Shown here piece by piece: positions 1,273-18,150 of a stretch of DNA of 64,000 nucleotides. The DNA is from Calothrix sp. FI2-JRJ7 (lineage in GTDB: Bacteria > Cyanobacteriota > Cyanobacteriia > Cyanobacteriales > Nostocaceae): positions 62,001 to 126,000 of the forward strand of contig JAHHGX010000067.1 of the NCBI GenBank assembly GCA_019359675.1. The letters are read 5' to 3'. A program made the position numbers and the translations under genes. The number at the start of each line of letters is the position of its first letter. Positions within the stretch are counted from its first letter, which is position 1. The notes beneath the pieces were generated by a model that did not search any database, was not told the origin of the DNA, and saw nothing but the letters and a program-made list of their open reading frames with translations.

Positions 1273-1852
1273 ATGATTGTACAAGCTAACAAAAAAGAAT
1301 ATTATACTCTTAACGAATATTTTGAATTAGAAATTAATTCTCAGGAACGTCATGAGTACATTGATGGTGAAATTATTCTTATGACTGGTGGAACGCCTAA
1401 TCACAATAGAATAGCTTTAAACTTTAGCGCAGCATTTAATTTAGCAGTAAAACAGCAATCATATGAAACTTTTGTTGCAGTCCAAAAACTTTGGATTCCG
1501 AAAAAACGCATTAACACTTATCCGGATGTAATCGTAGTTGAAGGTGAGATACAATTACAAGAAGGGCGCCGAGATACAATTACTAATTCTTTTGATGATT
1601 GCTGAGGTATTATCAGAATCTACAAGGGCATATGATAAAGACCAAAAATTTCCTGCTTATCGTACTATACCTAGCTTTAAAGAATATATTTTAATAGACC
1701 AATATAGCGTATATGTTGAGCAATATTATAAAACTAACAGCAAAACTTGGACATTTACAGAATATGATGATTTAAATCAAAATTTATCTTTGAACTCAAT
1801 GCCTTTCCAAATAATGCTTGCTGATATTTATAGCAAGGTTAAATTTGAGTAA
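1273..1852 (+). pseudogene. Uma2-family (DUF820) endonuclease-like gene, frameshifted
   Basis: The first frame (1273-1605) has the Uma2 start: YYTLNEYFELE, then ERHEYIDGEIILMTGGTPNHN, and the PDVIVVEGE strand with its conserved Asp. The frame breaks near 1590, just after DTITN. A second frame ending at 1852 resumes in register with IAEVLSESTRAYDKDQKF, YRTIPSFKEYILIDQ and VEQY, which are the downstream Uma2 motifs. One extra base in the TTCTTTTGATG stretch explains the break. Restored, the protein would be about 190 residues, the normal family length. Uma2 proteins have a PD-(D/E)XK-like fold and are abundant in cyanobacteria, with mostly unknown roles. A sequencing error cannot be excluded. 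Confidence 0.85.
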
Positions 1853-4750: not shown

Positions 4751-5116
4751 TCAAAATTCTCTTTCTTGAATATTAAATTCTCCGCTCAGACAATCGAAAT
4801 CATTAATCCAATCTCTAAAAGCCATTCCTTGGCTTGAAATATTGTCAAATACTTTACCTAGTACCTCCACACCATAATGCTTAGCATTTATTGTAATCGT
4901 ATCAGTAACACCTTGACTCATCAATCTATGGCTAAGAATAAAATCATCATCTCGATACTTTCTTTTAATCCGGATAATCTTCCCCTTTATGTGATTGACT
5001 TTTAACCATTGCACAATAGCAGTAGCACATTCGTAACACTCAAGAAGTTGAAAGGGCGCCACTATATTACTAACTTCTTGATAAATCTCATCGTCTGATA
5101 AATTGCCCACCCACAC
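4751..5116 (-). CDS. Papain-fold toxin domain protein (Tox-PL-2 type), stand-alone
   Basis: The 121 residues show the cyanobacterial papain-fold toxin 2 pattern: a catalytic Cys in ECYECATAIVQWL, then GKIIRIK, ISHRLMSQGVT-like (here ILSHRLMSQGVTDT), the catalytic His in INAKHYGVEVLGKVFDN with Asp/Asn, and the closing WINDFDCLSGEF. These domains usually form the C-terminal tip of large polymorphic toxins and are thought to act as cysteine peptidases or deamidases. Here it is a free-standing gene with no secretion or RHS domain. It lies 37 bp after dndE and before the probable immunity gene, as if appended to the dnd operon. The substrate is unknown. Confidence 0.7.
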   Translation of the reverse strand: MWVGNLSDDEIYQEVSNIVAPFQLLECYECATAIVQWLKVNHIKGKIIRIKRKYRDDDFILSHRLMSQGVTDTITINAKHYGVEVLGKVFDNISSQGMAFRDWINDFDCLSGEFNIQEREF

Positions 5117-5153: not shown

Positions 5154-5540
5154 CTACGTATTTACTGTTAATTCAATTAAATCTTCAATTTTCTTAATCT
5201 TTTGGTCGCCAGCCAAATAACCAATACCACGGTGTAGGTGTAATGTTAGCTGTTCTGCTAAAACTTCTTTTGTAGTACCCAAACCATCGTTATAACAGCG
5301 CTGTTTAAGAGCAATTAACAGCATATCGGAAATCTCACCTCCAAATACACGCCAATTCATCTCAACATTACTATCTAATTTTATAGGCACTGGGGAGGGA
5401 GGTGTTGGTTCTGCTAGCGAACGACACAGTGCCCAACGGCATAATATATTCCATTGGTCTATTTTTGTAATCCGCTTGAGCTTAATTAATTGCTCTTTAG
5501 CCGTTTGCGATAATTTTACACGTTCAAGAGGTGGTTCCAT
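5154..5540 (-). CDS. dndE: DNA sulfur modification protein DndE
   Basis: The 128-residue basic protein matches DndE: ERVKLSQTAKEQLIKLKRIT at the start, then QWNILCRWALCRSLAEP, NWRVFGGEISDMLLIALKQR and LTLHLHRGIGYLAG. DndE is a small DNA-binding subunit of the phosphorothioation complex with DndC and DndD. Length is normal. The start MEPPLERVK is preceded by an STRR-like repeat (5541-5580) that separates it from the decayed Panacea gene, so its expression may depend on read-through from dndC-dndD. The papain-fold toxin gene follows 37 bp after its stop. Confidence 0.88.
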   Translation of the reverse strand: MEPPLERVKLSQTAKEQLIKLKRITKIDQWNILCRWALCRSLAEPTPPSPVPIKLDSNVEMNWRVFGGEISDMLLIALKQRCYNDGLGTTKEVLAEQLTLHLHRGIGYLAGDQKIKKIEDLIELTVNT

Positions 5541-5635: not shown

Positions 5636-5999
5636 TTAACTATTTAGCTGAGTTTTAAAATATTCCTTCATTTGACTTGTGAGAAATTTTTGTATTAGTT
5701 TGAGCCGCTAATTTCCAAGGATATTCTTCCTGAGTCATATTACGTAACTTGCAAGCAGCAAATTGCCCAAATTCTAGATAAACCTCATCTAGAAAACTCT
5801 TTGTTTCATCGTCATATATAGAAAAATCTACATCATTAGGGTAATCGATGGCGCCTGTTCCATACTTTTTGTAATATTCAAACAACACACGAACAACAGC
5901 CCCATGTGTCCAAGCTTCCAGAGGTTCACAGAAAAGCGGCGTATCATAAAGTGCCAAAAAATATTTAGCTACATCAAAACAACTTAACATTACTACCAT
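5636..5999 (-). pseudogene. Decayed Panacea-domain (DUF4065/SocA-like) gene between dndD and dndE
   Basis: The open frame (5655-5999, 114 residues) has Panacea motifs: SCFDVAKYFLA, then LEAWTHGAVVRVL, YPNDVDFSIYDDET, FLDEVYLEFGQF and KLRNMTQEEYPW. Two defects show decay. The block that normally links FLA to LYDTPLF (the SNLKLQKLLYYAQGF-type helix, about 28 residues) is missing in frame. Near the end the frame also slips: after ISH the next frame reads MKEYFKTQLNS up to a stop at 5636, the typical family C-terminus. Panacea domains act as antitoxins or proteolysis adaptors in toxin-antitoxin pairs. It starts 9 bp after dndD, so it sits inside the dnd operon. No partner toxin is recognisable beside it. 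Confidence 0.75.
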
Positions 6000-6008
6000 C
6001 GTCCTCTA

Positions 6009-8009
6009 CTACCAGAAATACCCATCAACTACCGATGTTTGACGTTTTGCCGAGTCATACTTAAGTAAATACTCGCGTGCGATAGCTTCGTTTTCTCGAA
6101 GTTTTTCAACTTCGGCTTTACCTATTTCTGTATCTGTAGAGAGTAATATTACCTGATGACTTGCTGCGGGGAAGTATTTTTCTACTAAGTTACCTCGGTG
6201 CGATGAGTCAAGGCGCCCTAATGGTGTGTCAATAGCAACAGGTAAACGGCGCCCAGAAACGCGCGCAAGTCCCCATAAAAAAGCTATGGCTAAAAGTTGC
6301 TTTTCCCCTGCTGATAAACGATGTTTGGGAACAGCTTTACCACGCACGTCGTATAATGAAAGGCTAAAGTTATCGGTATTAATCGCTACACGATGAACTA
6401 AGTCTGATTTGTGCAGCAAATAGCGAAAGCATTCAGTTATCTCAATTTCTAGCTTATTTAATTTTTTTAATGTCAGCTTTTCTCGAAATAGTTTAAGTGT
6501 TTGTTGTACTCTTGCAGATGCTGCAATAATATGTTCTGTGTTTTTCTTGTCTATTGTTTGTGTGGTGTATTCTCTTAAATTTGCTTTTGTGCTTCCTATT
6601 TCAACCTCTAGCTCGCGAATACCTCCTTTAATAGATTCACATTTGGCGCCTGCTTCAGTAACTTTTTTCTGAGCTTTTTTTAAAACATCTACTAAATAAG
6701 TATATTCTTCAGGAGAAGCCGCAGTTTGGATTTGACGTTCTAACGTAATTATCTCGTCTTCTTTTTGCTTTAAAATCTTTAATTGCTGTTTGGCTAATGT
6801 TTTTGTATTTTGTAACTGATAGAAGATATTACTTAACTGGCTTAGACTATCTGCATCTGGTAATAACCAAAGTTCTTCTGGCTGTATTAAATTAGCATTG
6901 AGAGTTGTAATATCTTCATCTAAAAAACTCTTTATTTTTTGGGATTCTTCAGATGATATATCTAATTTTGATATCAAATCGAGTAAACGTTTATCGCGCT
7001 CAAATAATATATCGCTAGCAATTTGCGCTTGCTGAATACGATATTCTTTCTCTCCTTGTGTTTGTCCTTGGAAGAGTAAATTTTCTACTAAAGCTAAGGG
7101 TAAAACATTTGCTGAAATATCACACATACCCAAGCGTGCTTCCTCAACTTCTAATACTTTTTGGTCACGCTGCTTTTCTAATTGATTACGCTCTGCGGCT
7201 ATTTTTCCACCTTCAGCAACAAATTTATCCAGCGCATCTTTTTGGTCTTTTTCCGCTTGGTTGAAATCACTTATATATGAAGCTTCTTCTTCTTTTATTT
7301 TTACGTAGTCTTCTTGTAAAAAACTTAGTTTTTCTTCAATTTTTTCAAGGTCTGCTAAATCTTCTGTATCAGCTAATTCTTTACGCTTACGGTTTACTAT
7401 AATTTCGATATCAACTGCTAACTTATCAGCTAGTTCTAACCCTAACATTGCGCGTATTGCGTCTGCAACAGCAGGAGGTGGAATTTCTTGTTCTGCTAAC
7501 TCTTTAACTTGCTCACCATCAAAAAGGAATAAATTAGAAATTCCTACAGGTAGTATATTTTCAATATAATCATCCCACGTATTTACTAATTCTTCTCTCA
7601 TTAATCCATCAGGTACGTTAGGGTCTAATTCTAGAACACCTAATGAGTCTTTGCCTTCTTTAGGAATACTATCCCAATAGCGTACAATTTTATATACTAC
7701 AGGTTTATTGTCTTGAATATGTTCAAAAGTTAATTCAATCCTTGTGTTATCAACAGGAGTTGCGTGGTTATTAACACATTGACTCAAAAAATCACTATAG
7801 CTTAAATTTCCGCGAGTTGAACATTCAGCACGATGTCCGTATAGTGCGAGACGTATCGCGTCCATAAATGTTGTTTTTCCACCACCATTCATTCCACCAA
7901 GCAATAAAATCGGACGTGAAGTATCTTTATCAACTTCTGTGTCAAGATTGATAACGTTTTTTCCGCTATATGGTCCGAAGTTTTGTAATACTAGTTCAAT
8001 AAATTTCAT
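6009..8009 (-). CDS. dndD: DNA sulfur modification protein DndD (SMC/Rad50-like ATPase)
   Basis: The 666 residues follow the DndD plan: an N-terminal ATPase half with Walker A GGMNGGGKT at 38-46, FLFDGEQVKELAE about residue 165, a central coiled coil rich in Glu/Lys/Gln, then the ABC-type signature KHRLSAGEKQLLAIAFLWGL and Walker B-like RRLPVAIDTPLGRLDSSH near the C-terminus. DndD is the nicking-associated ATPase of the DndCDE phosphorothioation complex. It lies 207 bp after dndC in the same orientation and directly before the Panacea remnant. No zinc-hook CxxC is visible in the coiled coil, unlike the second ATPase at 13168. Confidence 0.9.
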   Translation of the reverse strand: MKFIELVLQNFGPYSGKNVINLDTEVDKDTSRPILLLGGMNGGGKTTFMDAIRLALYGHRAECSTRGNLSYSDFLSQCVNNHATPVDNTRIELTFEHIQDNKPVVYKIVRYWDSIPKEGKDSLGVLELDPNVPDGLMREELVNTWDDYIENILPVGISNLFLFDGEQVKELAEQEIPPPAVADAIRAMLGLELADKLAVDIEIIVNRKRKELADTEDLADLEKIEEKLSFLQEDYVKIKEEEASYISDFNQAEKDQKDALDKFVAEGGKIAAERNQLEKQRDQKVLEVEEARLGMCDISANVLPLALVENLLFQGQTQGEKEYRIQQAQIASDILFERDKRLLDLISKLDISSEESQKIKSFLDEDITTLNANLIQPEELWLLPDADSLSQLSNIFYQLQNTKTLAKQQLKILKQKEDEIITLERQIQTAASPEEYTYLVDVLKKAQKKVTEAGAKCESIKGGIRELEVEIGSTKANLREYTTQTIDKKNTEHIIAASARVQQTLKLFREKLTLKKLNKLEIEITECFRYLLHKSDLVHRVAINTDNFSLSLYDVRGKAVPKHRLSAGEKQLLAIAFLWGLARVSGRRLPVAIDTPLGRLDSSHRGNLVEKYFPAASHQVILLSTDTEIGKAEVEKLRENEAIAREYLLKYDSAKRQTSVVDGYFW

Positions 8010-10150: not shown

Positions 10151-11746
10151 ATGGGCGCCAGAACATCTAAGCAAGTTAAGGATACTACAGGTTCTTACTC
10201 ATTGGGAGGAACCACCGATAAACAGGTGCTTTCTCAACTCCTCGATGAGTGTTTCGACAATAAGAATCAAATTCCAGTGCAAAAAGTTGAAATGGGTGGT
10301 ACAGAAGCATATGTAGGCTCTGTTACTCTCGAATGGTTTGCGAACCGAGTTAACTTTGCTTCATATTTACCTTTGCTTCGTCACAAGTATAATCCTCAAA
10401 CAGGCAATATCGAGATAGATGCCGAAAGTATCGACGAAATTCAACAGCGTCCTATCGACTGGTCACGTCAATCAGCTTTAGTACAATACCTTGCATCGCG
10501 TAAGCACCATAAGTTTCCGCCAGTTTTGGTAGTTGTCAACCAACCTTGGGTAGACATTCCCCACGCAGAAGAGTGGGATAACAAAGGAAAAGCTAGAAGG
10601 TCTGCTATAGAATTTACCCCATTGGATAGCGGAAACAAATTTGGTTTACTCAATATATCTGATGAAGATGTAACTATTTATGCCTTAGACGGGCAGCATC
10701 GTTTAATGGGAGTCCAAGGTTTAATAGAATTACTTTCCGCACGTAAGCTTCAACGTTATAAAAGAGACAAGACTCCTTACGAATCATTTATAACTATTGA
10801 TGATTTAGTCGAACAATTCGACATTTCACAAAGTTACCTAAAAAACATACCACAAGAAAAAATTGGTATCGAGTTTATATCGGCAGTTGGGATTGGAGAA
10901 ACCCGCGAAGAAGCAAGGCAAAGAGTGCGCTCAATTTTCGTCCACGTTAACCTAATGGCAGTACCTTTAACCAAAGGTCAGCTGACACAGCTAGATGAAG
11001 ATGATGGTTTCTCTATTGCCGCAAGAAAAATAGCTGTTACCCATCCCTTATTAGAACAACGTGAGGATAGAAAAGCGCGCGTAAATTGGAATAGCGCAAC
11101 AGTTGCCACAAAATCTACAGTCTTGACAACGCTGCAAGCACTCAAAGAAATGTCAGAGCGCTACTTAGGGCAGAAATATCCACATTGGAAACAAGAAAAA
11201 GGTTTAGTCCCCAAACGTCCTGAGAGCGATGAATTGTCCGAGGGAATTGCTGAGTTTCATAAGCTGTTTGATTATTTAGCCAGTCTATCGAGCTATAAAG
11301 TTTTAGAAGAAGAGGACACACCATCACTACGACGCTTTAGCTTCGAGAAAGAGAGTGGAGAGGGAAACATGCTTTTCCGTCCAGTTGGTCAAGTTGCAAT
11401 AGTTCAAGCGCTAGGTGTTTTAGTCTTCAAAAAAGAACTTTCGCTCGAAAAGATTTTTAAAAAGCTTCGCAAATTTGACCGTGAAGGTGGTTTTAGTAAT
11501 ATCGAGTTTCCAAAATCCATATGGTACGGTGTTTTATACGACCCTAACCGCAAGCGAATACTCGTAGCTGGAAAAGACTTAGCAGCAAAACTACTAATAT
11601 ATATTTTGGGTGGAGTCCAAGATTCAGTCGAACGCGCAAAATTACGCTCAAGTCTCGCAAAAGCAAGAACCTTCGAGAATAAAACGATAAATTTTGAAGG
11701 TGATTTTGTAGACTCTAAGGAAGTTGCGCTTCCACCGCTTTTATAG
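10151..11746 (+). CDS. Second DGQHR-domain (DndB-like) protein
   Basis: The 531 residues carry DGQHR at 180-184 in ALDGQHRLMGVQGLIELL, then a conserved VRSIFVHVNLMAVPLTKGQ block that corresponds to the FSTLNRRAKP region of the gene at 2258. Much longer than typical DndB (about 360 residues), it has an N-terminal extension and an inserted middle. Its position, divergent from dndC with a dyad-containing intergenic region, is that expected of a DndB regulator. The alternative is one of the accessory DGQHR proteins that accompany dnd loci. Convergent with Dnd-associated protein 4 at 11942. No clear ribosome-binding site precedes the ATG. Confidence 0.8.
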   Translation: MGARTSKQVKDTTGSYSLGGTTDKQVLSQLLDECFDNKNQIPVQKVEMGGTEAYVGSVTLEWFANRVNFASYLPLLRHKYNPQTGNIEIDAESIDEIQQRPIDWSRQSALVQYLASRKHHKFPPVLVVVNQPWVDIPHAEEWDNKGKARRSAIEFTPLDSGNKFGLLNISDEDVTIYALDGQHRLMGVQGLIELLSARKLQRYKRDKTPYESFITIDDLVEQFDISQSYLKNIPQEKIGIEFISAVGIGETREEARQRVRSIFVHVNLMAVPLTKGQLTQLDEDDGFSIAARKIAVTHPLLEQREDRKARVNWNSATVATKSTVLTTLQALKEMSERYLGQKYPHWKQEKGLVPKRPESDELSEGIAEFHKLFDYLASLSSYKVLEEEDTPSLRRFSFEKESGEGNMLFRPVGQVAIVQALGVLVFKKELSLEKIFKKLRKFDREGGFSNIEFPKSIWYGVLYDPNRKRILVAGKDLAAKLLIYILGGVQDSVERAKLRSSLAKARTFENKTINFEGDFVDSKEVALPPLL

Positions 11747-11941: not shown

Positions 11942-12415
11942 TCAAGGTAAAAATCTACTTAAATCAAATTCTCCGTCTGTTCTGTCTTTGCTTGTACGTT
12001 CGTAGCTAAGTAGTAATAATATACGTTCTAAATAGTCTACGGCGCCAAGCACTTCATTTTGGATTATTTCTAGCCCGCCGTTGGCATACTCTTCAAATAT
12101 TTGATTGCGCTGTTTCTCTAACTCTTCTTCGGTTGGTGATAGTATTTCTACATTTTGAGTTTCAACGATTGCTAATAATTTAATTACAACGTCATACCCC
12201 ATTGATATAAATTGCTCTATACGTATCGGCCCTGGTTCTTTTTTAGATACTCCTTCTAAAGGTACGCGCTTTTTGTGCTTGGCGCCTAACGTGGCAGCAA
12301 ATACAACTACATCCGCAAAGGTTTGAAATACCCCTGTTTTACCACCTGCAATAGTTAGAGATTTTACTAATTCGGCTTTATCTTTTGCGATTCTAATTTT
12401 GCCTGTTTCTGTCAT
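11942..12415 (-). CDS. DNA phosphorothioation-associated protein 4
   Basis: The 157 residues match what I recall of the Dnd-associated protein 4 family: IRIAKDKAELVKSLT, FQTFADVVVFAATLGAKHKK and VPLEGVSKKEPGPIRIEQF, then FEEYANGGLEIIQ and the C-terminal LERILLLLSYER. Family function is unknown; members are found with dnd genes. There is no signal peptide or membrane segment. It is the last gene of the minus-strand helicase operon, 242 bp after the broken Uma2 gene, with an inverted repeat (12448-12515) in the gap. Confidence 0.8.
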   Translation of the reverse strand: MTETGKIRIAKDKAELVKSLTIAGGKTGVFQTFADVVVFAATLGAKHKKRVPLEGVSKKEPGPIRIEQFISMGYDVVIKLLAIVETQNVEILSPTEEELEKQRNQIFEEYANGGLEIIQNEVLGAVDYLERILLLLSYERTSKDRTDGEFDLSRFLP

Positions 12416-12542: not shown

Positions 12543-13181
12543 TTAGGGTGTAGGTGGTGTAGGTGTAATTAACGGTTCAAATAAATATTGAATTTCAATT
12601 TCAACATCGGGATAAGCAACCAGCGATAGTTTGGCATTTTTATCTAAAACAGTTTGTTACATATAGTTGTCTTTTTCTGGTTCGCGAAACACATACATTT
12701 GTTGAGATTTAACATCTATAACAAAATATTCTGGTATTTTGGCTTTAGCGTAAGTACGTGCTTTTGTTTTGCGGTCTTTATTGAAAGTTCTGTCTGCGAC
12801 TTCTACAAGCAAGTAAATATCTTCTGATGCAGGATGAGCAGTAGCGTATCCTTGAGGGTCGATGCGAACAACTGCTACATCTGGTTCAGGTTCTGAGTTA
12901 GGACGTAAAGTTACTGGCGCCTGCACTCTAATAGTTGCCTTTTGTCTTAACAAATCCCTAATATAATCTGATGATATTTGTGTAATTGAAGCATGTGGAG
13001 GTTTGTGGGCAGTCATCTGTATAATTTGACCTTCGAGTAATTCTACTTTGTGTTTTTCCGTAATAATTTCAGCGTCAATCATGCGGTGGTAGTCTTCTAC
13101 AGTCCACAAATGTAAACTTGTTTCTGGTGCTGTATCTACTGCTGTAGCTGAAACATCCCCAAATGCTTTACTGACCATCAC
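12543..13181 (-). pseudogene. Uma2-family endonuclease-like gene with in-frame nonsense codon
   Basis: The frame from 13181 encodes Uma2 motifs: WTVEDYHRMIDAEI, KVELLEGQIIQMTAHKPPHA, the PEPDVAVVR strand with conserved Asp, LLVEVADRTF with conserved Glu, and YAKAKIPEYFVIDVKSQQMYVFREP. It stops at TAA 12657-12659 after DNYM. The same frame then continues QTVLDKNAKLSLVAYPDVEI and further to a stop at 12543, which is the usual Uma2 C-terminal strand. A CAA-to-TAA change would explain this. Loss of about 37 residues may or may not abolish function. The start overlaps the ATPase gene end by 14 bp, implying co-transcription with the helicase operon. Confidence 0.8.
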
Positions 13182-15243
13182 GGTTAACCTCTATTATTTC
13201 GGTATACTCGAATTCGTTGGGACTTTGCCTAACTAAAGGATATCGAATTCCTCCAAGTTCTATATAATCTTGTTCGCAGTCGGGTTTAGATGAGTGGTAA
13301 GTTAAAACGTATTCTTTTCCTACGCGGTTTGCTATTTCTTCTTGCAGTTCTCCTCTCCACTGGGTTTTTGTTACTAGCACCACTAGTTGGTTCGCCATTT
13401 CTGGAACTATTTTTGCTATATGGCGCCGTGATATCTCATCTAAGCTACCAAATGGGGAGTCCATAACAATTGGAAAAGTGCTGCTTTCAGGAAGCATTAA
13501 CATTTTTTTCTTTCCGCTCCACTCGCGCACTTTATCGATAATGCTACTAATAAACGAAAGGCTAAGTATTTGATTTTCTCCGGTTGATGCCGCAACGGGC
13601 ATTTCTACACCAAGACTATTTTCCATCAGTGTTAGTTCGTATTTGTCGCTAATTTTTGGAATATATGGCGCCGGAGATATAGCGCTAAATATCTCTTGAA
13701 CCCGTTTTTCGAGCGAATAACGAAAATGATTCTCTTGCCGTGTTTTTACTTCGCTCAACCTGTCGATGGCATCAGTAGTGGCGCCAATACGACGCTGTGC
13801 CAGCAGTTGCCGTTCTTCGTTCAGCTTTTGCTTGATTATTTGTTTATTCAAATCATCTAACTCAGCATTTAATGTCTCTGTTTGCTGCTGGTTGCGGCCT
13901 TGTTCAAAAATTAACTCAGAAATCTTCGCTTCAATATCATCTACACGCTGTTCAATATCGCGAATTTCTTCACTTGGGTTTTTTCGCAGCTTTTCCTTAA
14001 TTTCAAGCAATTCTGATTCAACTTGGGCCAGTGTTTGCCTAGCCTCATTAATCCTAACTTGCTCTGCATCTACTTCTTGCCAAAATGACACTGCTTGCTT
14101 GTCAATTTCATCAACTTGTGCAGTCATGCGAATAGCTGTTTCCTCTACTGTAGAAGAACCTGCTTTTTCTAACCAATGTTCAACATGTTTACGCGCTTGA
14201 CTATGTTCGTGTAAATAACTACCACAAATGCATTTGCTACCATTGAGTAAACTAATTACAAATTCGCGCGATATTCCCGACTTGAAGCCACCAGAATCTT
14301 TGAGGTTCTCAATAATATTACGGAATTTTATATTAGTTTCTGAAAGTAATACACTATAACCTTGATTAGAGATATACCGCTGTAAGTTATCTTTACTTTT
14401 CGCCAACTGCTTTTGTAACGAGTCTTTCTGTGATTCCAAATGTTGGCGTCGTTCTTGCAACTCCTTAACAGCACTCAGTTCACGCAAGCGACTACTAACT
14501 TCTTGCCTAAATGTATTTTGATATTCTATCTCTTGCTGAATTTCAACAGAACGCTTACTAATTGCCTCAACCTGAGACTCAATATTACTCTGCTGCTTAA
14601 GTAACTTCTTAATTTCCAAATCCCCAATAGCGCGTAGTTCACCTTCCAACGAGCGTTTCGCTTCTGCCAAATGCCTTATTGAACGGTTTATTACCTCTAC
14701 TCCCAAAAGCATTTTCGTAGCTTCGGCAATTTCAGCTTTCTTGTCATTACGAACAATCTTCTCTATCCGTTCACCGTCAAAAAAGAAATATTGATGCAAA
14801 CTACAAGGCAAAATTTGATTAATAATATCCTCTGGATGTTGGTCAGGGACAAACCAGCGTCCATCATCCCCTGTCACCAACATAAACATATCAGTCTTAC
14901 CCGCTTCCACATCAAACTCGGTTCTATATACCCGACACTGACGTTTGGCACGGTAGCGCTTACTGTCGTGTTCCCAAGTAATTTCTACATAACAATCTAC
15001 AGCTTGCCCAACAGAAGCTTCTGCAACCGCGCGTTTATTCACCAACTGTTCTGCCGACGCAAAAGCAGCACTAAATTTTTCATAAAGCACCCAAGTAAAC
15101 CCATTTAATAAACTCGTCTTCCCAACACCATTATTTCCATGAAATACTGTCGTATTTTTTACTTCGTCAACCGAGAGAAACATTTCTGGTGTTTTACCAT
15201 AAAACGAGCGAAAGTTACAAAGACTTATCGATATCAGCTTCAT
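13168..15243 (-). CDS. DndD/Rad50-like SMC-family ATPase with CxC hook
   Basis: The 691 residues have Walker A GNNGVGKT at 36-43, YFFFDGERIEKIV about residue 152, long coiled coils either side of a hook motif SKCICGSYLHEH (Cys 338 and 340), then ASTGENQILSLSFISSII as the signature and PIVMDSPFGSLDEISRRH as Walker B/D-loop. It is a paralogue of DndD, but the C-x-C hook resembles Rad50-type zinc-hook dimerisation, absent from the other DndD here. It overlaps the 72-residue gene by 4 bp (ATGA) and follows the helicase, so I infer a restriction or DNA-end-processing role within the Dnd system. A second modification ATPase is the alternative. Confidence 0.8.
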   Translation of the reverse strand: MKLISISLCNFRSFYGKTPEMFLSVDEVKNTTVFHGNNGVGKTSLLNGFTWVLYEKFSAAFASAEQLVNKRAVAEASVGQAVDCYVEITWEHDSKRYRAKRQCRVYRTEFDVEAGKTDMFMLVTGDDGRWFVPDQHPEDIINQILPCSLHQYFFFDGERIEKIVRNDKKAEIAEATKMLLGVEVINRSIRHLAEAKRSLEGELRAIGDLEIKKLLKQQSNIESQVEAISKRSVEIQQEIEYQNTFRQEVSSRLRELSAVKELQERRQHLESQKDSLQKQLAKSKDNLQRYISNQGYSVLLSETNIKFRNIIENLKDSGGFKSGISREFVISLLNGSKCICGSYLHEHSQARKHVEHWLEKAGSSTVEETAIRMTAQVDEIDKQAVSFWQEVDAEQVRINEARQTLAQVESELLEIKEKLRKNPSEEIRDIEQRVDDIEAKISELIFEQGRNQQQTETLNAELDDLNKQIIKQKLNEERQLLAQRRIGATTDAIDRLSEVKTRQENHFRYSLEKRVQEIFSAISPAPYIPKISDKYELTLMENSLGVEMPVAASTGENQILSLSFISSIIDKVREWSGKKKMLMLPESSTFPIVMDSPFGSLDEISRRHIAKIVPEMANQLVVLVTKTQWRGELQEEIANRVGKEYVLTYHSSKPDCEQDYIELGGIRYPLVRQSPNEFEYTEIIEVNRDGQ

Positions 15244-15458
15244 TGCACAACACCCTTAATAATTGTCAAAATATCATCACTTATATGACCAAAACTTTTT
15301 CTATCAAGTCGGTTCTTCTCTAACTGCCACACCATTTCGATTATTTTTCTCACTTCTTCGGGCGCCGTGTATATAGGCGCCTGTACATCCTCAATATCGT
15401 CAAAATTATTTTCTGTATTAATTTCTAAATCACTACCCTTATTACTCTGCCTTTTCAT
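15240..15458 (-). CDS. Small conserved-position protein in Dnd helicase-ATPase operon
   Basis: The 72-residue product is not recognised. The N-terminal half is acidic and disordered-looking (NTENNFDDIEDVQAP); the C-terminal half reads as helix (EEVRKIIEMVWQLEKNRLD, then HISDDILTIIKGVVQ). There is no leader or membrane segment. Its stop overlaps the start of the SMC-like ATPase by 4 bp, a strong sign of translational coupling and of a shared complex. It starts 232 bp after the helicase gene. Confidence 0.65.
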   Translation of the reverse strand: MKRQSNKGSDLEINTENNFDDIEDVQAPIYTAPEEVRKIIEMVWQLEKNRLDRKSFGHISDDILTIIKGVVQ

Positions 15459-15643
15459 CAGTAATGTTCCTAGATATATTTGATACGATTGTACTTTTTC
15501 GTATCATATTTTTCTATCCGTGAACGTACTGTGTTTAAATTGTCAAGATAATCTTTAGAAACCCTTTCTATATATAGGTTTACACAATTATCATGTAATA
15601 TTAAATACATTTATTTGTTTGTGAAGAAATATCAAAAAAAATG

Positions 15644-15675
15644 AACCCCCTAGCCGAGTGCGCGGAAGGGGGGAT
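15644..15675. repeat. Short C/G-rich hairpin between helicase and 72-residue gene
   Basis: GAACCCCCTAGCCGAGTGCG and the following GGAAGGGGGGATC form a degenerate hairpin of the family seen at 3612 and 47571. It may cause partial termination inside the operon. Confidence 0.55.
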
Positions 15676-15690
15676 CAAAATTGGTTTATT

Positions 15691-17202
15691 TTATATGCTA
15701 AGTAACCCGTAGCGTTTTTGTAGCTCAAGTAATTTAATCCTAGCTTCCCCTGCATTATCAGCTAAATCAGCAAATTCAATAAACCGCTTTAATTCCTTCC
15801 TAAGCAAGTTACGTTCAACTGAAAGCGTATTCCTATCTAAATCTGGTGGTAAAACAATCATATCGAATACCGTTGCCCTTTCTTTTCCAGGGTGTGGACG
15901 TAAAACTCGACCTCGACGCTGGATAAACTGACGAGGATTACTTGAACTCGCGAGTATTACGGCTGTTTGAATAGCAGGAATATCAACACCTTCATCTAAA
16001 CATTTTATTGCGACTAAACCTTGTAGTTCTCCACTTTCAAACTGGCACCGTAATTTTTCTCGTTCAGATAAGGGCGTTTGTGCTGTATATGTAGTAATAC
16101 GATAATTTAATTCAACGCCTAATATTTGAGTAACTGCCCTAAGTTGACTCAAGTCAGATTTCGAGTCCGCTTGAGGAGAACCATCGCCACAGTAAAATAA
16201 TGTATGAGTAGTTTCTCGGCGCCGCTGCATGAGTTCGCGCAATGCGTTAAGCTTATTTTCGGCGGCGCCAACAAGCCTTGCACGCCGCATTAATAGATGT
16301 GTAATATCCTCGTTATTCTCAATATCCGTTAAATCCGCACCCTCTTTGTTCTTAAACAAAAGTTTACGTCCAATTTTCTGCGTAATCTTAGAATACGCAA
16401 TACTTTCTGTCTCAGTTAACTCTACAAGAACTGGATAATATAAATAGTGGACTAATGCCCCTTGTTGAATTGCATCTTTTAATGTAAACTCCGGCTGAAT
16501 AACTGCCCCAAAGTAGCTAAGTAAAGATTGAGTACCGTCATCATCGTAATATCTTTCGGGTGTCGCTGAAAGTCCTAACCGTAATCCCACTTGCCGAGGT
16601 AGACTTTCTTCCACTTTCGAGGCGCCTAAATTATGCGCTTCATCTCCAATAATTAAAGTACGTTCAGGTAAATATCTAAGCTGTGATTGAAAACTGTCTG
16701 TGTTTAAAGTCGAGTTAGTCGTAATTATAGTTAAAAATTCTTGCGTGCCTGAATGTATATTATAAAGCTGTGTTGTTAGCTGACTTTGCCAAGTGCTTAC
16801 ACTTTCAAAAGCTAATATCGGCTGTAAGTTAAATTTTTCACATTCCCGTCCCCACTGCGTCACTAAATGTCGATAAGGACATACTACAAGTAATACTTGA
16901 AGTTTAATTTGTTTGTAAAGTTCACAGGCTATTGATAATGCAGTAATAGTCTTACCGCTACCTGTCGCCATTTTCAATGTACCCCGACCATTACTTTTAA
17001 ACCAGTTGGTAATCGCTTGGGTTTGATATGAACGTAATACCAACCATGATGGTATATGCGGGCGCCCAGGTGATGGTTTTACGTGGTAGTTGTTGGTTGA
17101 CTCCCTGACGGAACGAAATAATTTTTTCGTTGAAAGTTGAAATGTATTAGATAAGTTAATTTGCCCAGATGTTTTTTCTACCCTGGTTTTGGTTAGATAC
17201 AT
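15691..17202 (-). CDS. DNA phosphorothioation system restriction enzyme-type SF2 helicase
   Basis: The 503-residue superfamily 2 helicase shows LRSYQTQAITNWF (Q-like), motif I MATGSGKT at 78-85, motif II GDEAH at 186-190, motif III LSATP, then LVAIKCLDEGVDIPAIQTAVIL and motif VI QFIQRRGRVLRP. This resembles the family of helicases described as the restriction enzyme of dnd loci. The fold is ResIII/Ssl2-like, but I see no nuclease domain, so cutting would need a partner, perhaps the SMC-like ATPase downstream. The N-terminal 45 residues are a non-conserved extension; a later start is possible. It is the first gene of the minus-strand operon. Confidence 0.8.
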   Translation of the reverse strand: MYLTKTRVEKTSGQINLSNTFQLSTKKLFRSVRESTNNYHVKPSPGRPHIPSWLVLRSYQTQAITNWFKSNGRGTLKMATGSGKTITALSIACELYKQIKLQVLLVVCPYRHLVTQWGRECEKFNLQPILAFESVSTWQSQLTTQLYNIHSGTQEFLTIITTNSTLNTDSFQSQLRYLPERTLIIGDEAHNLGASKVEESLPRQVGLRLGLSATPERYYDDDGTQSLLSYFGAVIQPEFTLKDAIQQGALVHYLYYPVLVELTETESIAYSKITQKIGRKLLFKNKEGADLTDIENNEDITHLLMRRARLVGAAENKLNALRELMQRRRETTHTLFYCGDGSPQADSKSDLSQLRAVTQILGVELNYRITTYTAQTPLSEREKLRCQFESGELQGLVAIKCLDEGVDIPAIQTAVILASSSNPRQFIQRRGRVLRPHPGKERATVFDMIVLPPDLDRNTLSVERNLLRKELKRFIEFADLADNAGEARIKLLELQKRYGLLSI

Positions 17203-17502
17203 ATATTAGTTAATTTTATATTTGGGTTTTGATCCCCCTACGAAGGGGGATCAACTTGAACTTGTCGTGCAAGTTACGGTGCTATTTGAATAAATCTGAA
17301 TACCATAACTTGCACAACAAACAAGTAATCTGTCATACCTATTTTGGTAAATTTTTTTAACACGCTATCGATGACCGCAGAGACGTAGTAATATCCCTTC
17401 GGAAAAACCTCCGGTTTACACGTCTCTACAGAATTATCCATAGCACCTTATTTCGTCAAAAAGGTACAAGTTTTGCATCTTACCTTCGCCCGTCGATGCG
17501 GT
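17203..17502. repeat. 300-bp intergenic region with two hairpins
   Basis: A perfect hairpin GATCCCCCTA/CGAAGGGGGATC lies at 17231-17252, and a GCAGAGACGT...ACGTCTCTAC inverted repeat at 17377-17430. The latter belongs to a family also at 29660-29748, 48690-48717 and about 50080. The sequence contains no gene that I can see and separates the dnd island from lexA. Confidence 0.7.
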
Positions 17503-18111
17503 CTACTGAATTTCAGTGCGCCATACAGCTACAAGTGAACCTTGAACTTGAACGTTTGAAGCAGTTACTTCAATTGGGTCATATTTACGGTTTGCGGGTT
17601 GTAAAGTAACCATTTCTCCTTCGCGATAAAACCGCTTCAGAGTTGTGCCATGACCTTCAACGCGCGCAGCAACAATTGTGCCATTCTTCAAATAGTCAGG
17701 CTCTAGCACAGGACGTAAGAAGACTAAATCACCATCGGCGATTAAATCCTCAATCATGCTGTCACCCGTGACGCGCAACGCATAAGTTTGTAACGGCAAT
17801 GCTAAGTTCATAAAGTCAATATGCTCTACTGCATCGCTGTAAGGCTCAATCAAACCACCTGCGGCAATTGTTCCTAAAACTGGGATACCGTGTCTTGACG
17901 CACGCAATACCCTGATTGTACGAGCTTTACCCTCATTCCACTCGATGTAGCCCTTTGTGCGTAAATGCTCAAGACGACTTTGAATTGGCGCCGGCGATTT
18001 TAAGTTCATCGCTTGCATCATCTGTCTAATAGAGGGCGAATGCTGGTGCATACGGATATATTCCGTTAGCCATTCGTACAATTCTTTTTGCGCTTCCGTT
18101 AATCGTTCCAT
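17503..18111 (-). CDS. lexA: LexA repressor (S24 autopeptidase)
   Basis: Starting at MERLTEAQKELYEWL gives 202 residues, the normal LexA length; an upstream ATG at 18141 would add ten non-conserved residues. The N-terminal winged helix includes SPSIRQMMQAMNLKSPAPIQ. The C-terminal peptidase has the cleavage Ala-Gly (TIAAGG, about 84-85), catalytic Ser118 in TGDSMI and Lys159 in TTLKRF. All elements for self-cleavage are present, unlike some cyanobacterial LexA proteins. In cyanobacteria LexA can control genes beyond the SOS set. A matching LexA box lies 40 bp upstream of the start, implying autoregulation. Minus strand, monocistronic in appearance. Confidence 0.93.
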   Translation of the reverse strand: MERLTEAQKELYEWLTEYIRMHQHSPSIRQMMQAMNLKSPAPIQSRLEHLRTKGYIEWNEGKARTIRVLRASRHGIPVLGTIAAGGLIEPYSDAVEHIDFMNLALPLQTYALRVTGDSMIEDLIADGDLVFLRPVLEPDYLKNGTIVAARVEGHGTTLKRFYREGEMVTLQPANRKYDPIEVTASNVQVQGSLVAVWRTEIQ

Positions 18112-18150
18112 ATAACCTAGATTTAAGGAGGTGAAATACAAATCTCCCTT

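What the first reader, a model, noticed from the sequence alone, without database searches (positions are those of the whole stretch)
13168..17202. Candidate phosphorothioate-dependent restriction operon: SF2 helicase, 72-residue protein and CxC-hook SMC ATPase
Directly seen: three minus-strand genes in one run next to a dndCDE set; the small gene and ATPase overlap by 4 bp (ATGA). The helicase resembles the Dnd restriction-enzyme helicase family. The ATPase is a DndD paralogue but has SKCICG (Cys 338/340) in its coiled coil, a Rad50-like hook absent from the true DndD at 6009. No dndFGH genes and no nuclease domain are visible. Inference: helicase plus Rad50-like ATPase plus the small protein could sense unmodified DNA as one complex, with an unseen nuclease activity.
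Basis: partly seen in the sequence, partly recalled or inferred. Interest (0 to 1): 0.72.

Follow-up and report, generated by a model that had tools for sequence, protein, structure and literature searches.

The report
Cyanobacterial Pbe system without HKD nuclease
A known antiviral gene set that reads sulfur marks on DNA has lost the cutting part of its helicase in one large group of cyanobacteria, yet is inherited there like core genes, so it either works without cutting or leaves cutting to a neighbouring gene.

Summary
The operon is the published Pbe (CxC ABC-ATPase) system, not a new kind: the helicase is PbeA, the 72-residue protein stands in PbeB's place, and the hook ATPase is PbeC (PADLOC, 1097 bits). 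A probable PbeD (TIGR04062, DndE-like fold) lies at 11942-12415 beside dndCDE.

The surprise is what is missing. Published PbeA carries an N-terminal HKD nuclease; here it is absent. In 386 sampled cyanobacterial genomes, 89 unbroken helicases lack it, form one clade (one loss), keep their motifs and show dN/dS about 0.08; 12 other copies keep it. PbeA, PbeC, TIGR04062 and DndC occur together in 86 of 105 genomes of the order (9 none, 10 part). In 13 of 55 contigs with all four they lie at least 120 kb apart. Gene trees follow family labels.

A late check corrected me: a Uma2 putative nuclease gene follows pbeC on the same strand in 27 of 69 loci (0-3 after each of eight control genes), so cutting may sit in a separate protein where it is present.

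Best reading: a vertically kept phosphorothioate-reading motor complex, nuclease-free at its core, with Uma2 as optional effector. The mechanism is inferred.

The parts
15691..17202 (-). pbeA, HKD-less: XPB-like SF2 helicase (503 aa) that lacks the ~230-270 aa N-terminal HKD/PLD nuclease part of long PbeA
   Evidence: TIGR04095 670 bits, cut-off 600; PADLOC PbeA residues 33-487 = profile 233-681 of 682; only 48 open codons ahead of the helicase match
15240..15458 (-). pbeB position: 72-aa small protein, two confident C-terminal helices, ATGA overlap with pbeC
   Evidence: No profile hit; homologous ORF upstream of 83 of 102 PbeC, 4-bp overlap in 71 of 83; model mean pLDDT 78, 10-residue blocks from residue 31 on 83-95
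13168..15243 (-). pbeC: CxC-hook (Cys338/Cys340) ABC ATPase
   Evidence: PADLOC PbeC PDLC02753 1096.7 bits; CxC position
12657..13181 (-). Uma2-family putative nuclease (174 aa) overlapping pbeC by 14 bp: candidate effector in trans; same operon slot as in 26 other loci, but of another Uma2 lineage than those
   Evidence: PF05685 103.5 bits; slot and controls; tree, and Pro100, Asp101, Glu127, Lys140 kept in 60 of 60
11942..12415 (-). candidate pbeD: TIGR04062 dnd_assoc_4, 157 aa, DndE-like fold
   Evidence: TIGR04062 189.7 bits; model pLDDT 83.5; the 7 best PDB matches are all DndE chains; hhalign to cyanobacterial DndE not significant
10151..11746 (+). DGQHR/DndB-like gene (531 aa), recurrent member of the clustered form
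   Evidence: TIGR03187 189.6 bits; found in 43 of 69 PbeC loci of at least 9 kb, this one included, elsewhere at 59-74% identity
8217..9869 (-). dndC, sulfurtransferase for DNA phosphorothioation
   Evidence: TIGR03183 695.8 bits
6009..8009 (-). dndD, ABC ATPase without CxC hook
   Evidence: TIGR03185 679.5 bits; no CxC
5154..5540 (-). dndE
   Evidence: PF08870 150.9 bits; TIGR03184 128.9 bits
17503..18141 (-). lexA, recurrent same-strand neighbour upstream of pbeA (context, not part of the system)
   Evidence: TIGR00498 203.8 bits; within 4 kb of 43 of 89 HKD-less pbeA, all on the same strand, and of 0 of 12 HKD-type

Best explanation
The operon is an HKD-less variant of the Pbe (CxC ABC-ATPase) system, paired with the dndCDE phosphorothioate (PT) writer. 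SHOWN HERE: PbeA lost its HKD nuclease once, at or near the base of one cyanobacterial order; the helicase has been conserved since; PbeA, PbeC, TIGR04062 and DndC are retained or lost largely as a set and follow host families, even where they lie far apart on the chromosome; a Uma2 putative nuclease gene recurs directly after pbeC in a part of the loci. INFERRED: PbeC with the DndE-like protein and PbeB scans DNA for PT marks; on unmarked DNA it loads the XPB-like PbeA motor, which translocates and stalls replication or clears other proteins without cutting, as reported for archaeal PbeABCD. Where Uma2 is present it can act as a separate, optional cutter. The core has become a vertically kept function of these hosts rather than a mobile island.
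For: Identity. Nuclease loss: the segment ahead of the helicase match is at least 251 aa in 12 proteins and at most 83 aa in 89, nothing between; PLDc_2 in 11 of 12 long and 0 of 89 short proteins; HEKxxxxxD in 12 of 12 long ones, and no HKD-encoding DNA by tblastn (E <= 1e-3) in the fetched surroundings of the 89, which are up to 20 kb and shorter at contig ends; one change of state on the tree, the 89 on one side of a branch with SH-aLRT 99. Working helicase: Walker A and motif VI in 89 of 89, Asp, Glu and His of the DExH motif invariant, dN/dS median 0.076 over 526 pairs at 80-98.5% identity, maximum 0.154. Co-retention and scatter: 86 of 105 genomes of the order match all four genes, 9 none, 10 some; of 55 contigs with all four, 13 have every pair over 50 kb apart, the smallest gap being 120,677 bp. 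Vertical: family labels need 21 changes on the PbeA tree (minimum 18, shuffled 56.8) and 20 on the PbeC tree (minimum 18, shuffled 55.8); pbeA lies near lexA in 43 of 89. Contrast: in samples of two other phyla PbeA is rare and in long frames (688-769 aa), 3 of 229 and 2 of 198, the centre of each sample chosen because it has the gene. Uma2 optional: 39 of 69 loci with enough flank show neither of the two dedicated Uma2 lineages nor, as this window does, another Uma2 in the slot; these include the 7 fully scattered genomes whose PbeC flank was read. Mechanism: archaeal PbeABCD halts viral DNA replication with no cleavage seen, pbeA being partly required (PMC6459918, passages); nearest solved relatives of the helicase are archaeal XPB/RAD25, E 4e-35.
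Against: No experiment in a cyanobacterium. Uma2 is tightly and specifically placed in 27 of 69 loci, with its presumed catalytic residues intact, which speaks for cutting at least there. An unlinked nuclease could act in trans elsewhere. PbeD identity rests on fold: best Foldseek E 0.21, hhalign not significant. PbeB was not found in the ORF screen beside 10 PbeC of the core type, though one of these, G187, matched in the upstream translation. Much co-retention is shared ancestry. Ten genomes of the order keep only part of the set. No homologue of PbeB or TIGR04062 was found in phages, so no counter-defence supports an antiviral role.
Confidence: 0.47

Rival explanations
1. Nuclease swap: an ordinary cutting restriction system whose nuclease now acts in trans, above all the Uma2 protein encoded after pbeC, with an unlinked Uma2 or other nuclease where no Uma2 lies there.
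For: Same-strand Uma2 starts within -60..+900 bp of the pbeC end in 27 of 69 loci and within 60 bp in 22, against 3 of 47 after DndC, 2 of 93 after PbeA, and 0 after DndD (37), DndE (32), TIGR04062 (50), LexA (44), OTC (43) and DGQHR2 (44). Pfam of 85 downstream ORFs Uma2. Two Uma2 lineages of 20 and 19 copies lie on the same strand beside Pbe genes in 39 of 39 cases (38 after pbeC, one 44 bp after pbeA in G143); the first spans five families, including the HKD-bearing G193. Asp101, Glu127 and Lys140 are kept in 60 of 60. NAR 2024 (PMC10853773, sections read) argues that Pbe cuts.
Against: 39 of 69 loci have no such Uma2, among them the 7 fully scattered genomes whose PbeC flank was read. Uma2 came before the HKD loss (G193 has both), so it is not simply a replacement. 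Archaeal PbeABCD was reported to act without cleavage. The loci were chosen around Pbe genes, so Uma2 copies elsewhere in the genomes were not seen.
Confidence: 0.28
2. A genome-maintenance machine: PT marks on the host's own DNA are read by PbeBCD and the XPB-like motor for repair, replication or nucleoid control, with antiviral defence lost or secondary.
For: Core-like presence, scatter and vertical trees; nearest solved relatives are XPB repair helicases; recurrent lexA-pbeA order; no plasmid record with a copy as close as the short clade, the only match over 60% identity being HKD-type.
Against: lexA adjacency may be plain synteny. The only experimental precedent is antiviral, and there loss of dndCDEA gave no growth defect (PMC6459918). 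Nine genomes of the order match none of the four genes, so the set is not essential.
Confidence: 0.2
3. A decaying remnant: the nuclease was lost first and the rest is on its way out.
For: A few genomes show broken copies: G385 with stops in PbeA and DndC, G159 and G054 with split PbeA.
Against: 89 unbroken helicases with invariant motifs and dN/dS about 0.08, also in unlinked copies (median 0.090 over 115 pairs); C[IL]CG kept in 97 of 99 full PbeC.
Confidence: 0.02

Closest known systems
DndCDEA-PbeABCD of Haloterrigena jeotgali A29 (Xiong 2019, PMC6459918; passages read)
   Same: PbeA SF2 helicase, PbeB small protein (66 aa there, 72 here), PbeC ATPase, a ~150-aa PbeD (152 there, 157 here), partner dnd genes.
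   Different: There PbeA has an N-terminal PLD domain, the four genes are one transcription unit, and extensive gene transfer is reported. Here PLD is absent, the genes follow host families and are often scattered.
CxC ABC-ATPase / clade-2 DndE systems (NAR 2024, PMC10853773; sections 12, 14, 16 and passages read)
   Same: CxC hook, SF2 helicase, small protein, DndE-like partner, tandem with dndDE.
   Different: That paper states that the vast majority have the HKD DNase and that the small protein is rapidly evolving and mostly disordered. Here HKD is absent clade-wide, PbeB has a conserved, confidently helical C-terminal half, and Uma2 recurs after pbeC. Its main text has no 'cyanobacter' and no 'Uma2'.
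Vertically inherited dnd genes of Cyanobacteriales (Jian 2021, PMC8569181; abstract, section 7 and passages read)
   Same: Vertical inheritance in, I infer, the same order; disordered operons.
   Different: That paper calls the PT restriction part (DndFGH) absent and suggests an antioxidant role; 'pbe' does not occur in it. Here the PT writer is usually accompanied by a Pbe module.
Archaeal XPB/XPBII helicases
   Same: Best solved-structure match of the helicase profile (E 4e-35).
   Different: Different operon and partners; similarity is over the helicase core only.
DndFGH restriction
   Same: Both are PT-coupled partner modules.
   Different: No match to the two DndFGH models tried in this genome; no sequence homology to PbeABCD according to PMC6459918.

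Membership tests
PbeABCD (CxC ABC-ATPase) system | PbeC: DndD-like ABC ATPase with CxC hook | tested here: met
   PDLC02753 1096.7 bits; Cys338/Cys340
PbeABCD (CxC ABC-ATPase) system | PbeA SF2 helicase module | tested here: met
   TIGR04095 670 bits over cut-off 600
PbeABCD (CxC ABC-ATPase) system | PbeA N-terminal HKD/PLD nuclease | tested here: not met
   48 open codons ahead of the helicase match; PLDc_2 in 0 of 89. So it is filed as an HKD-less variant, not as a standard member.
PbeABCD (CxC ABC-ATPase) system | PbeB small protein encoded next to PbeC | tested here: met
   ATGA overlap; homologous ORF upstream of 83 of 102 PbeC. Met by size and place; homology to archaeal PbeB was not tested.
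PbeABCD (CxC ABC-ATPase) system | PbeD: DndE cognate | tested here: inconclusive
   TIGR04062 protein: top 7 Foldseek hits all DndE, probability up to 0.91 but E 0.21; hhalign not significant
PbeABCD (CxC ABC-ATPase) system | Associated PT-modification genes | tested here: met
   dndC, dndD, dndE in the window
PbeABCD (CxC ABC-ATPase) system | PT-dependent replication arrest of unmodified viral DNA | not testable with these tools
   Needs phage or plasmid challenge
DndFGH restriction | DndF and DndH genes present | tested here: not met
   No match to TIGR03238 or TIGR03237 in the own genome; no positive control rang, and the model names are recalled
Rad50/SbcC repair ATPase | Best match to Rad50/SbcC models | tested here: not met
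   Best Rad50 model 41.5 bits against 149.7 for DndD and 1096.7 for PbeC
Uma2 family (neighbour gene 12657-13181) | Pfam PF05685 match with conserved acidic and Lys residues | tested here: met
   103.5 bits, cut-off 27; Asp101, Glu127, Lys140 in 60 of 60 aligned copies. That these are a PD-(D/E)XK active site is recalled; nuclease activity was not tested.

The most novel reading that the evidence does not exclude
A whole order of cyanobacteria has domesticated a DNA-backbone epigenetic system: PT marks written by DndCDE are read on the host's own chromosome by a nuclease-free PbeABCD motor complex that serves replication or repair, so that PT plus Pbe is a core genome-maintenance system and the HKD-armed Pbe copies found elsewhere are its weaponised relatives.
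Probability: 0.2. Interest if true: 0.88.

Novelty: new variant of a known kind. Interest (0 to 1): 0.63.

Why it matters
Two published views disagree on whether Pbe works by cutting DNA: Xiong 2019 saw no cleavage, NAR 2024 argues for cleavage because PbeA carries HKD. A lineage that discarded HKD once and then kept the rest under strong selection is a natural experiment on that question, and its loci with and without Uma2 offer a second one. It also revises the picture of cyanobacterial phosphorothioation as a writer without a partner, and adds Uma2, a very common but poorly understood cyanobacterial family (recalled), to the likely partners of Pbe. The database name 'DNA phosphorothioation system restriction enzyme' is carried by proteins without a nuclease domain; a Microcoleus study (PMC8546630, passages read) took a gene so named as a DNA-destroying enzyme, whereas the five loci labelled Microcoleus are HKD-less. 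The named loci include genera with laboratory strains, so direct tests are possible.

Tried and rejected
Uma2: I first rejected it as a part, because one tblastn query found it in only 6 of 69 loci. Uma2 is now treated as a recurrent, optional neighbour, and the odds were changed for that reason: best reading 0.55 to 0.47, nuclease in trans 0.20 to 0.28, maintenance 0.25 to 0.20, decay 0.03 to 0.02, novel case 0.25 to 0.20.

HKD domain hidden upstream or mis-called start: rejected; the open frame ahead of the helicase match ends within 95 codons in all 89 short proteins. The Pseudanabaena plasmid pbeA, annotated as 476 aa, is by contrast open over HKD and helicase in one frame and so is of the HKD type. 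Truncation special to this genome: rejected. Decay: rejected. RecN/SbcC/SMC membership: rejected. Phage-borne homologues of PbeB or TIGR04062: none found. PbeB fold match: none significant. The Fisher P values are not used, since related genomes are not independent.

Limits: the PbeA and PbeC trees are quick searches without bootstrap, and the PbeC tree used the simpler model. The genome-contig scan used two patterns, one of them the HKD motif, so its 15 non-cyanobacterial loci, all long, are biased; searches are the less biased check. Of 109 helicase rows, three weak ones (G367, G215, the second of G145) were not fetched and five pieces under 440 aa were left out of the protein counts. 'Match' in the co-occurrence counts includes a few contig-edge or partial genes (for example G151 PbeC, G070 TIGR04062, G360 DndC). 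DndD and DndE were not traced in the fully scattered genomes. The Uma2 background comes from loci around Pbe and Dnd genes only, not from whole genomes. The order's name is inferred from the named loci and from Jian 2021. That print lacks this observation rests on word searches in main texts and the paper searches; supplements were not read.

Full report
WHAT IS THERE. The three genes of the finding exist as described. Profile searches identify them: 15691-17202 as the helicase part of PbeA (TIGR04095 670 bits, cut-off 600; PADLOC PbeA profile positions 233-681 of 682), 13168-15243 as PbeC (PADLOC 1096.7 bits) with the CxC hook at Cys338/Cys340, and 15240-15458 as a small protein in the place of PbeB, with no hit in PADLOC, Pfam or NCBIfam. 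A Uma2 gene overlaps pbeC by 14 bp. dndC, dndD and dndE follow on the same strand. A fourth Pbe candidate is TIGR04062 at 11942-12415. Its model (pLDDT 83.5) finds DndE chains as its seven best PDB matches (best E 0.21, probability 0.91; the eighth, a nuclear receptor, has probability 0.02), which fits the published role of PbeD as DndE cognate. A profile comparison with cyanobacterial DndE was not significant, so this assignment is probable, not proven.

KNOWN SYSTEM. Xiong 2019 (PMC6459918; passages read) showed that PbeABCD of Haloterrigena, with PT from DndCDEA, halts virus DNA replication without visible cleavage; pbeA was partly required, pbeB, pbeC and pbeD fully. NAR 2024 (PMC10853773; [quoted passage not shown]

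THE HKD NUCLEASE IS GONE, IN A WHOLE CLADE. A sample of 386 cyanobacterial genomes gave 100 with a TIGR04095 match at E <= 1e-30, 91 over the cut-off. Of 109 matches, three weak ones were not fetched and five pieces under 440 aa left out. Of the remaining 101 proteins, 12 have at least 251 residues ahead of the helicase match and 89 at most 83, with none between; in all 89 the open frame ends within 95 codons upstream. PLDc_2 is found in 11 of the 12 and in none of the 89. All 12 long ones show HEKxxxxxD, and tblastn found no HKD-encoding DNA in the fetched surroundings of the 89; one weak partial hit (L155) lies in another locus of G237, around a distant PbeC relative. On the tree of 101 the state changes once, the 89 forming one side of a branch with SH-aLRT 99. 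The nearest HKD-bearing relatives are G193 and G170; G193's PbeA equals that of Pseudanabaena sp. lw0831 (100% identity). Among 80 named loci, 56 are short, all labelled cyanobacteria (Nostoc, Anabaena, Fischerella, Microcoleus, Microcystis, Planktothrix, Trichodesmium and others), while 9 cyanobacterial and 15 other loci have long frames (23 of these 24 with the HKD pattern; L262 without) (one scan pattern favours HKD). In samples of two other phyla the gene is rare and in long frames: 3 of 229 (688-729 aa) and 2 of 198 (717, 769 aa) at E <= 1e-80, counting the centre genome chosen for having it.

NOT DECAY. The helicase keeps Walker A and motif VI in 89 of 89, and the Asp, Glu and His columns of the DExH motif are invariant. 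dN/dS has a median of 0.076 (526 pairs at 80-98.5% identity, range 0.037-0.154); it is 0.090 for 115 pairs in which neither gene lies near PbeC and 0.071 for 178 linked pairs. C[IL]CG is kept in 97 of 99 full PbeC. A PbeB-like ORF is found upstream of 83 of 102 PbeC, 71 of these with the same 4-base overlap; its C-terminal half is conserved and modelled as two confident helices. In this lineage it is a constrained partner of PbeC rather than a disordered, fast-changing protein.

CO-RETENTION WITHOUT LINKAGE. In the window's order (43 genomes of its family plus 62 others), 86 of 105 match PbeA (at least 600 bits), PbeC, TIGR04062 and DndC; 9 match none; 10 part. Of 55 contigs carrying all four, 29 have them within 20 kb, 13 have every pair over 50 kb apart (smallest gap 120,677 bp), and 13 are mixed. 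HKD-type PbeA has a PbeC 203-741 bp away in 10 of 12 cases, none being detected on the contig of the other two. Six genomes carry both forms (G070, G116, G197, G253, G312, G357). The ten partial genomes: DndC alone in G058, G080, G211 and (broken, with a broken PbeA) G385; PbeA alone in G051; G070 without DndC; G097 without a close PbeC; G326 without PbeA; G054 with split PbeA; G159 with split PbeA and no DndC. Relics of TIGR04062 or PbeC were seen in G268, G011 and G060.

VERTICAL INHERITANCE. Family labels need 21 changes on the PbeA tree and 20 on the PbeC tree, against a minimum of 18 and shuffled means of 56.8 and 55.8. pbeA has lexA within 4 kb on the same strand in 43 of 89, including 19 without PbeC within 10 kb, and in 0 of 12 HKD-type. 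In 72,556 plasmid records the only match above 60% identity is the HKD-type Pseudanabaena copy. This agrees with Jian 2021 (PMC8569181; abstract, section 7 and passages), who found vertical inheritance of cyanobacterial DndD but described the PT restriction part (DndFGH) as absent and proposed an antioxidant role; 'pbe' does not occur in that text.

A NUCLEASE NEXT DOOR. A single tblastn query had found Uma2 in 6 of 69 loci. A Pfam scan of 85 same-strand ORFs starting within -60..+900 bp of the PbeC end in 69 loci of them Uma2. With a model built from these, 27 of 69 PbeC have such a Uma2, 22 within 60 bp, against 3 of 47 after DndC, 2 of 93 after PbeA and none after DndD (37), DndE (32), TIGR04062 (50), LexA (44), OTC (43) or DGQHR2 (44). 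On a tree of 60 Uma2 from these loci two lineages stand out: one of 20 copies (97/95 support) over five families including the HKD-bearing G193, and one of 19 (100/100). All 39 lie on the same strand beside Pbe genes, 38 after PbeC and one 44 bp after PbeA in G143. The window's own Uma2 fills the slot but belongs to another lineage. Pro100, Asp101, Glu127, Lys140 and Tyr144 are kept in 60 of 60. The two lineages occur in 29 of 69 usable genomes; with this window, 30 of 69 have a Uma2 there and 39 do not, among the latter the 7 fully scattered genomes whose PbeC flank was read (G056, G109, G119, G121, G145, G187, G368). Uma2 is thus an old, optional neighbour that came before the HKD loss.

HOW IT MOST LIKELY WORKS. 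Shown: architecture, single HKD loss, conservation, co-inheritance, recurrent Uma2. Inferred: PbeC with the DndE-like protein and PbeB inspects DNA for PT; on unmarked DNA it engages the XPB-like PbeA motor (nearest solved relatives archaeal XPB, E 4e-35), which stalls replication or strips proteins; Uma2, where present, may cut. The rivals are a full nuclease swap to Uma2 and a switch to host genome maintenance; the second is the most novel reading not excluded.

NOVELTY. A known kind of system in a new variant that lacks HKD, is core-like and often carries Uma2. I found no paper that states this in the searches; subscription journals and supplements are not covered.

Noticed in passing
window 4751-5116 and 5655-5999, minus strand: A Tox-PL-2 (papain-fold toxin) gene downstream of dndE and a SocA/Panacea antitoxin-like gene between dndD and dndE. 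By tblastn each was found in no other of the 69 loci, though many loci end before that point.
   Followed up: partly
window 10151-11746, plus strand: A 531-aa DGQHR/DndB-like gene, opposed to dndC, recurs in 43 of 69 PbeC loci: an unexplained conserved member of the clustered form.
   Followed up: partly
window 17202-18141: Recurrent lexA-pbeA order on one strand (43 of 89 HKD-less pbeA); it could mean co-regulation with DNA damage or mere synteny.
   Followed up: partly
L163, L164, L165, L166, L169, L171, L172: Two different Uma2 genes stand in tandem between pbeC and TIGR04062 in these genomes, one of each dedicated lineage; in G143 (L041) a copy follows pbeA where the Pbe genes are scattered.
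   Followed up: partly
window 1273-1852, plus strand: Two overlapping ORFs match the first and second half of Uma2, as in a frame-broken gene.
   Followed up: no
L002:17524-19662 and 14648-14878: The Pseudanabaena galeata plasmid pbeA is annotated as 476 aa, but the DNA is open in one frame over HKD and helicase (713 codons with the stop), so the annotated start is probably too late; a short Uma2 gene overlaps its pbeC.
   Followed up: partly
L139-L144 (G070, G253, G312, G357, G116, G197): Six genomes carry an HKD-type PbeA besides the HKD-less one: both forms coexist in one cell.
   Followed up: partly
L145, L148, L150 and other PbeC loci of scattered genomes: The PbeB-like ORF stays with PbeC even where PbeA and dndC have moved away, which makes PbeB-PbeC the tightest pair.
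   Followed up: partly
phage records MT835493, MT835506, MT837093: Three unannotated human-gut phage records encode PbeA-like helicases at 32-40% identity.
   Followed up: no
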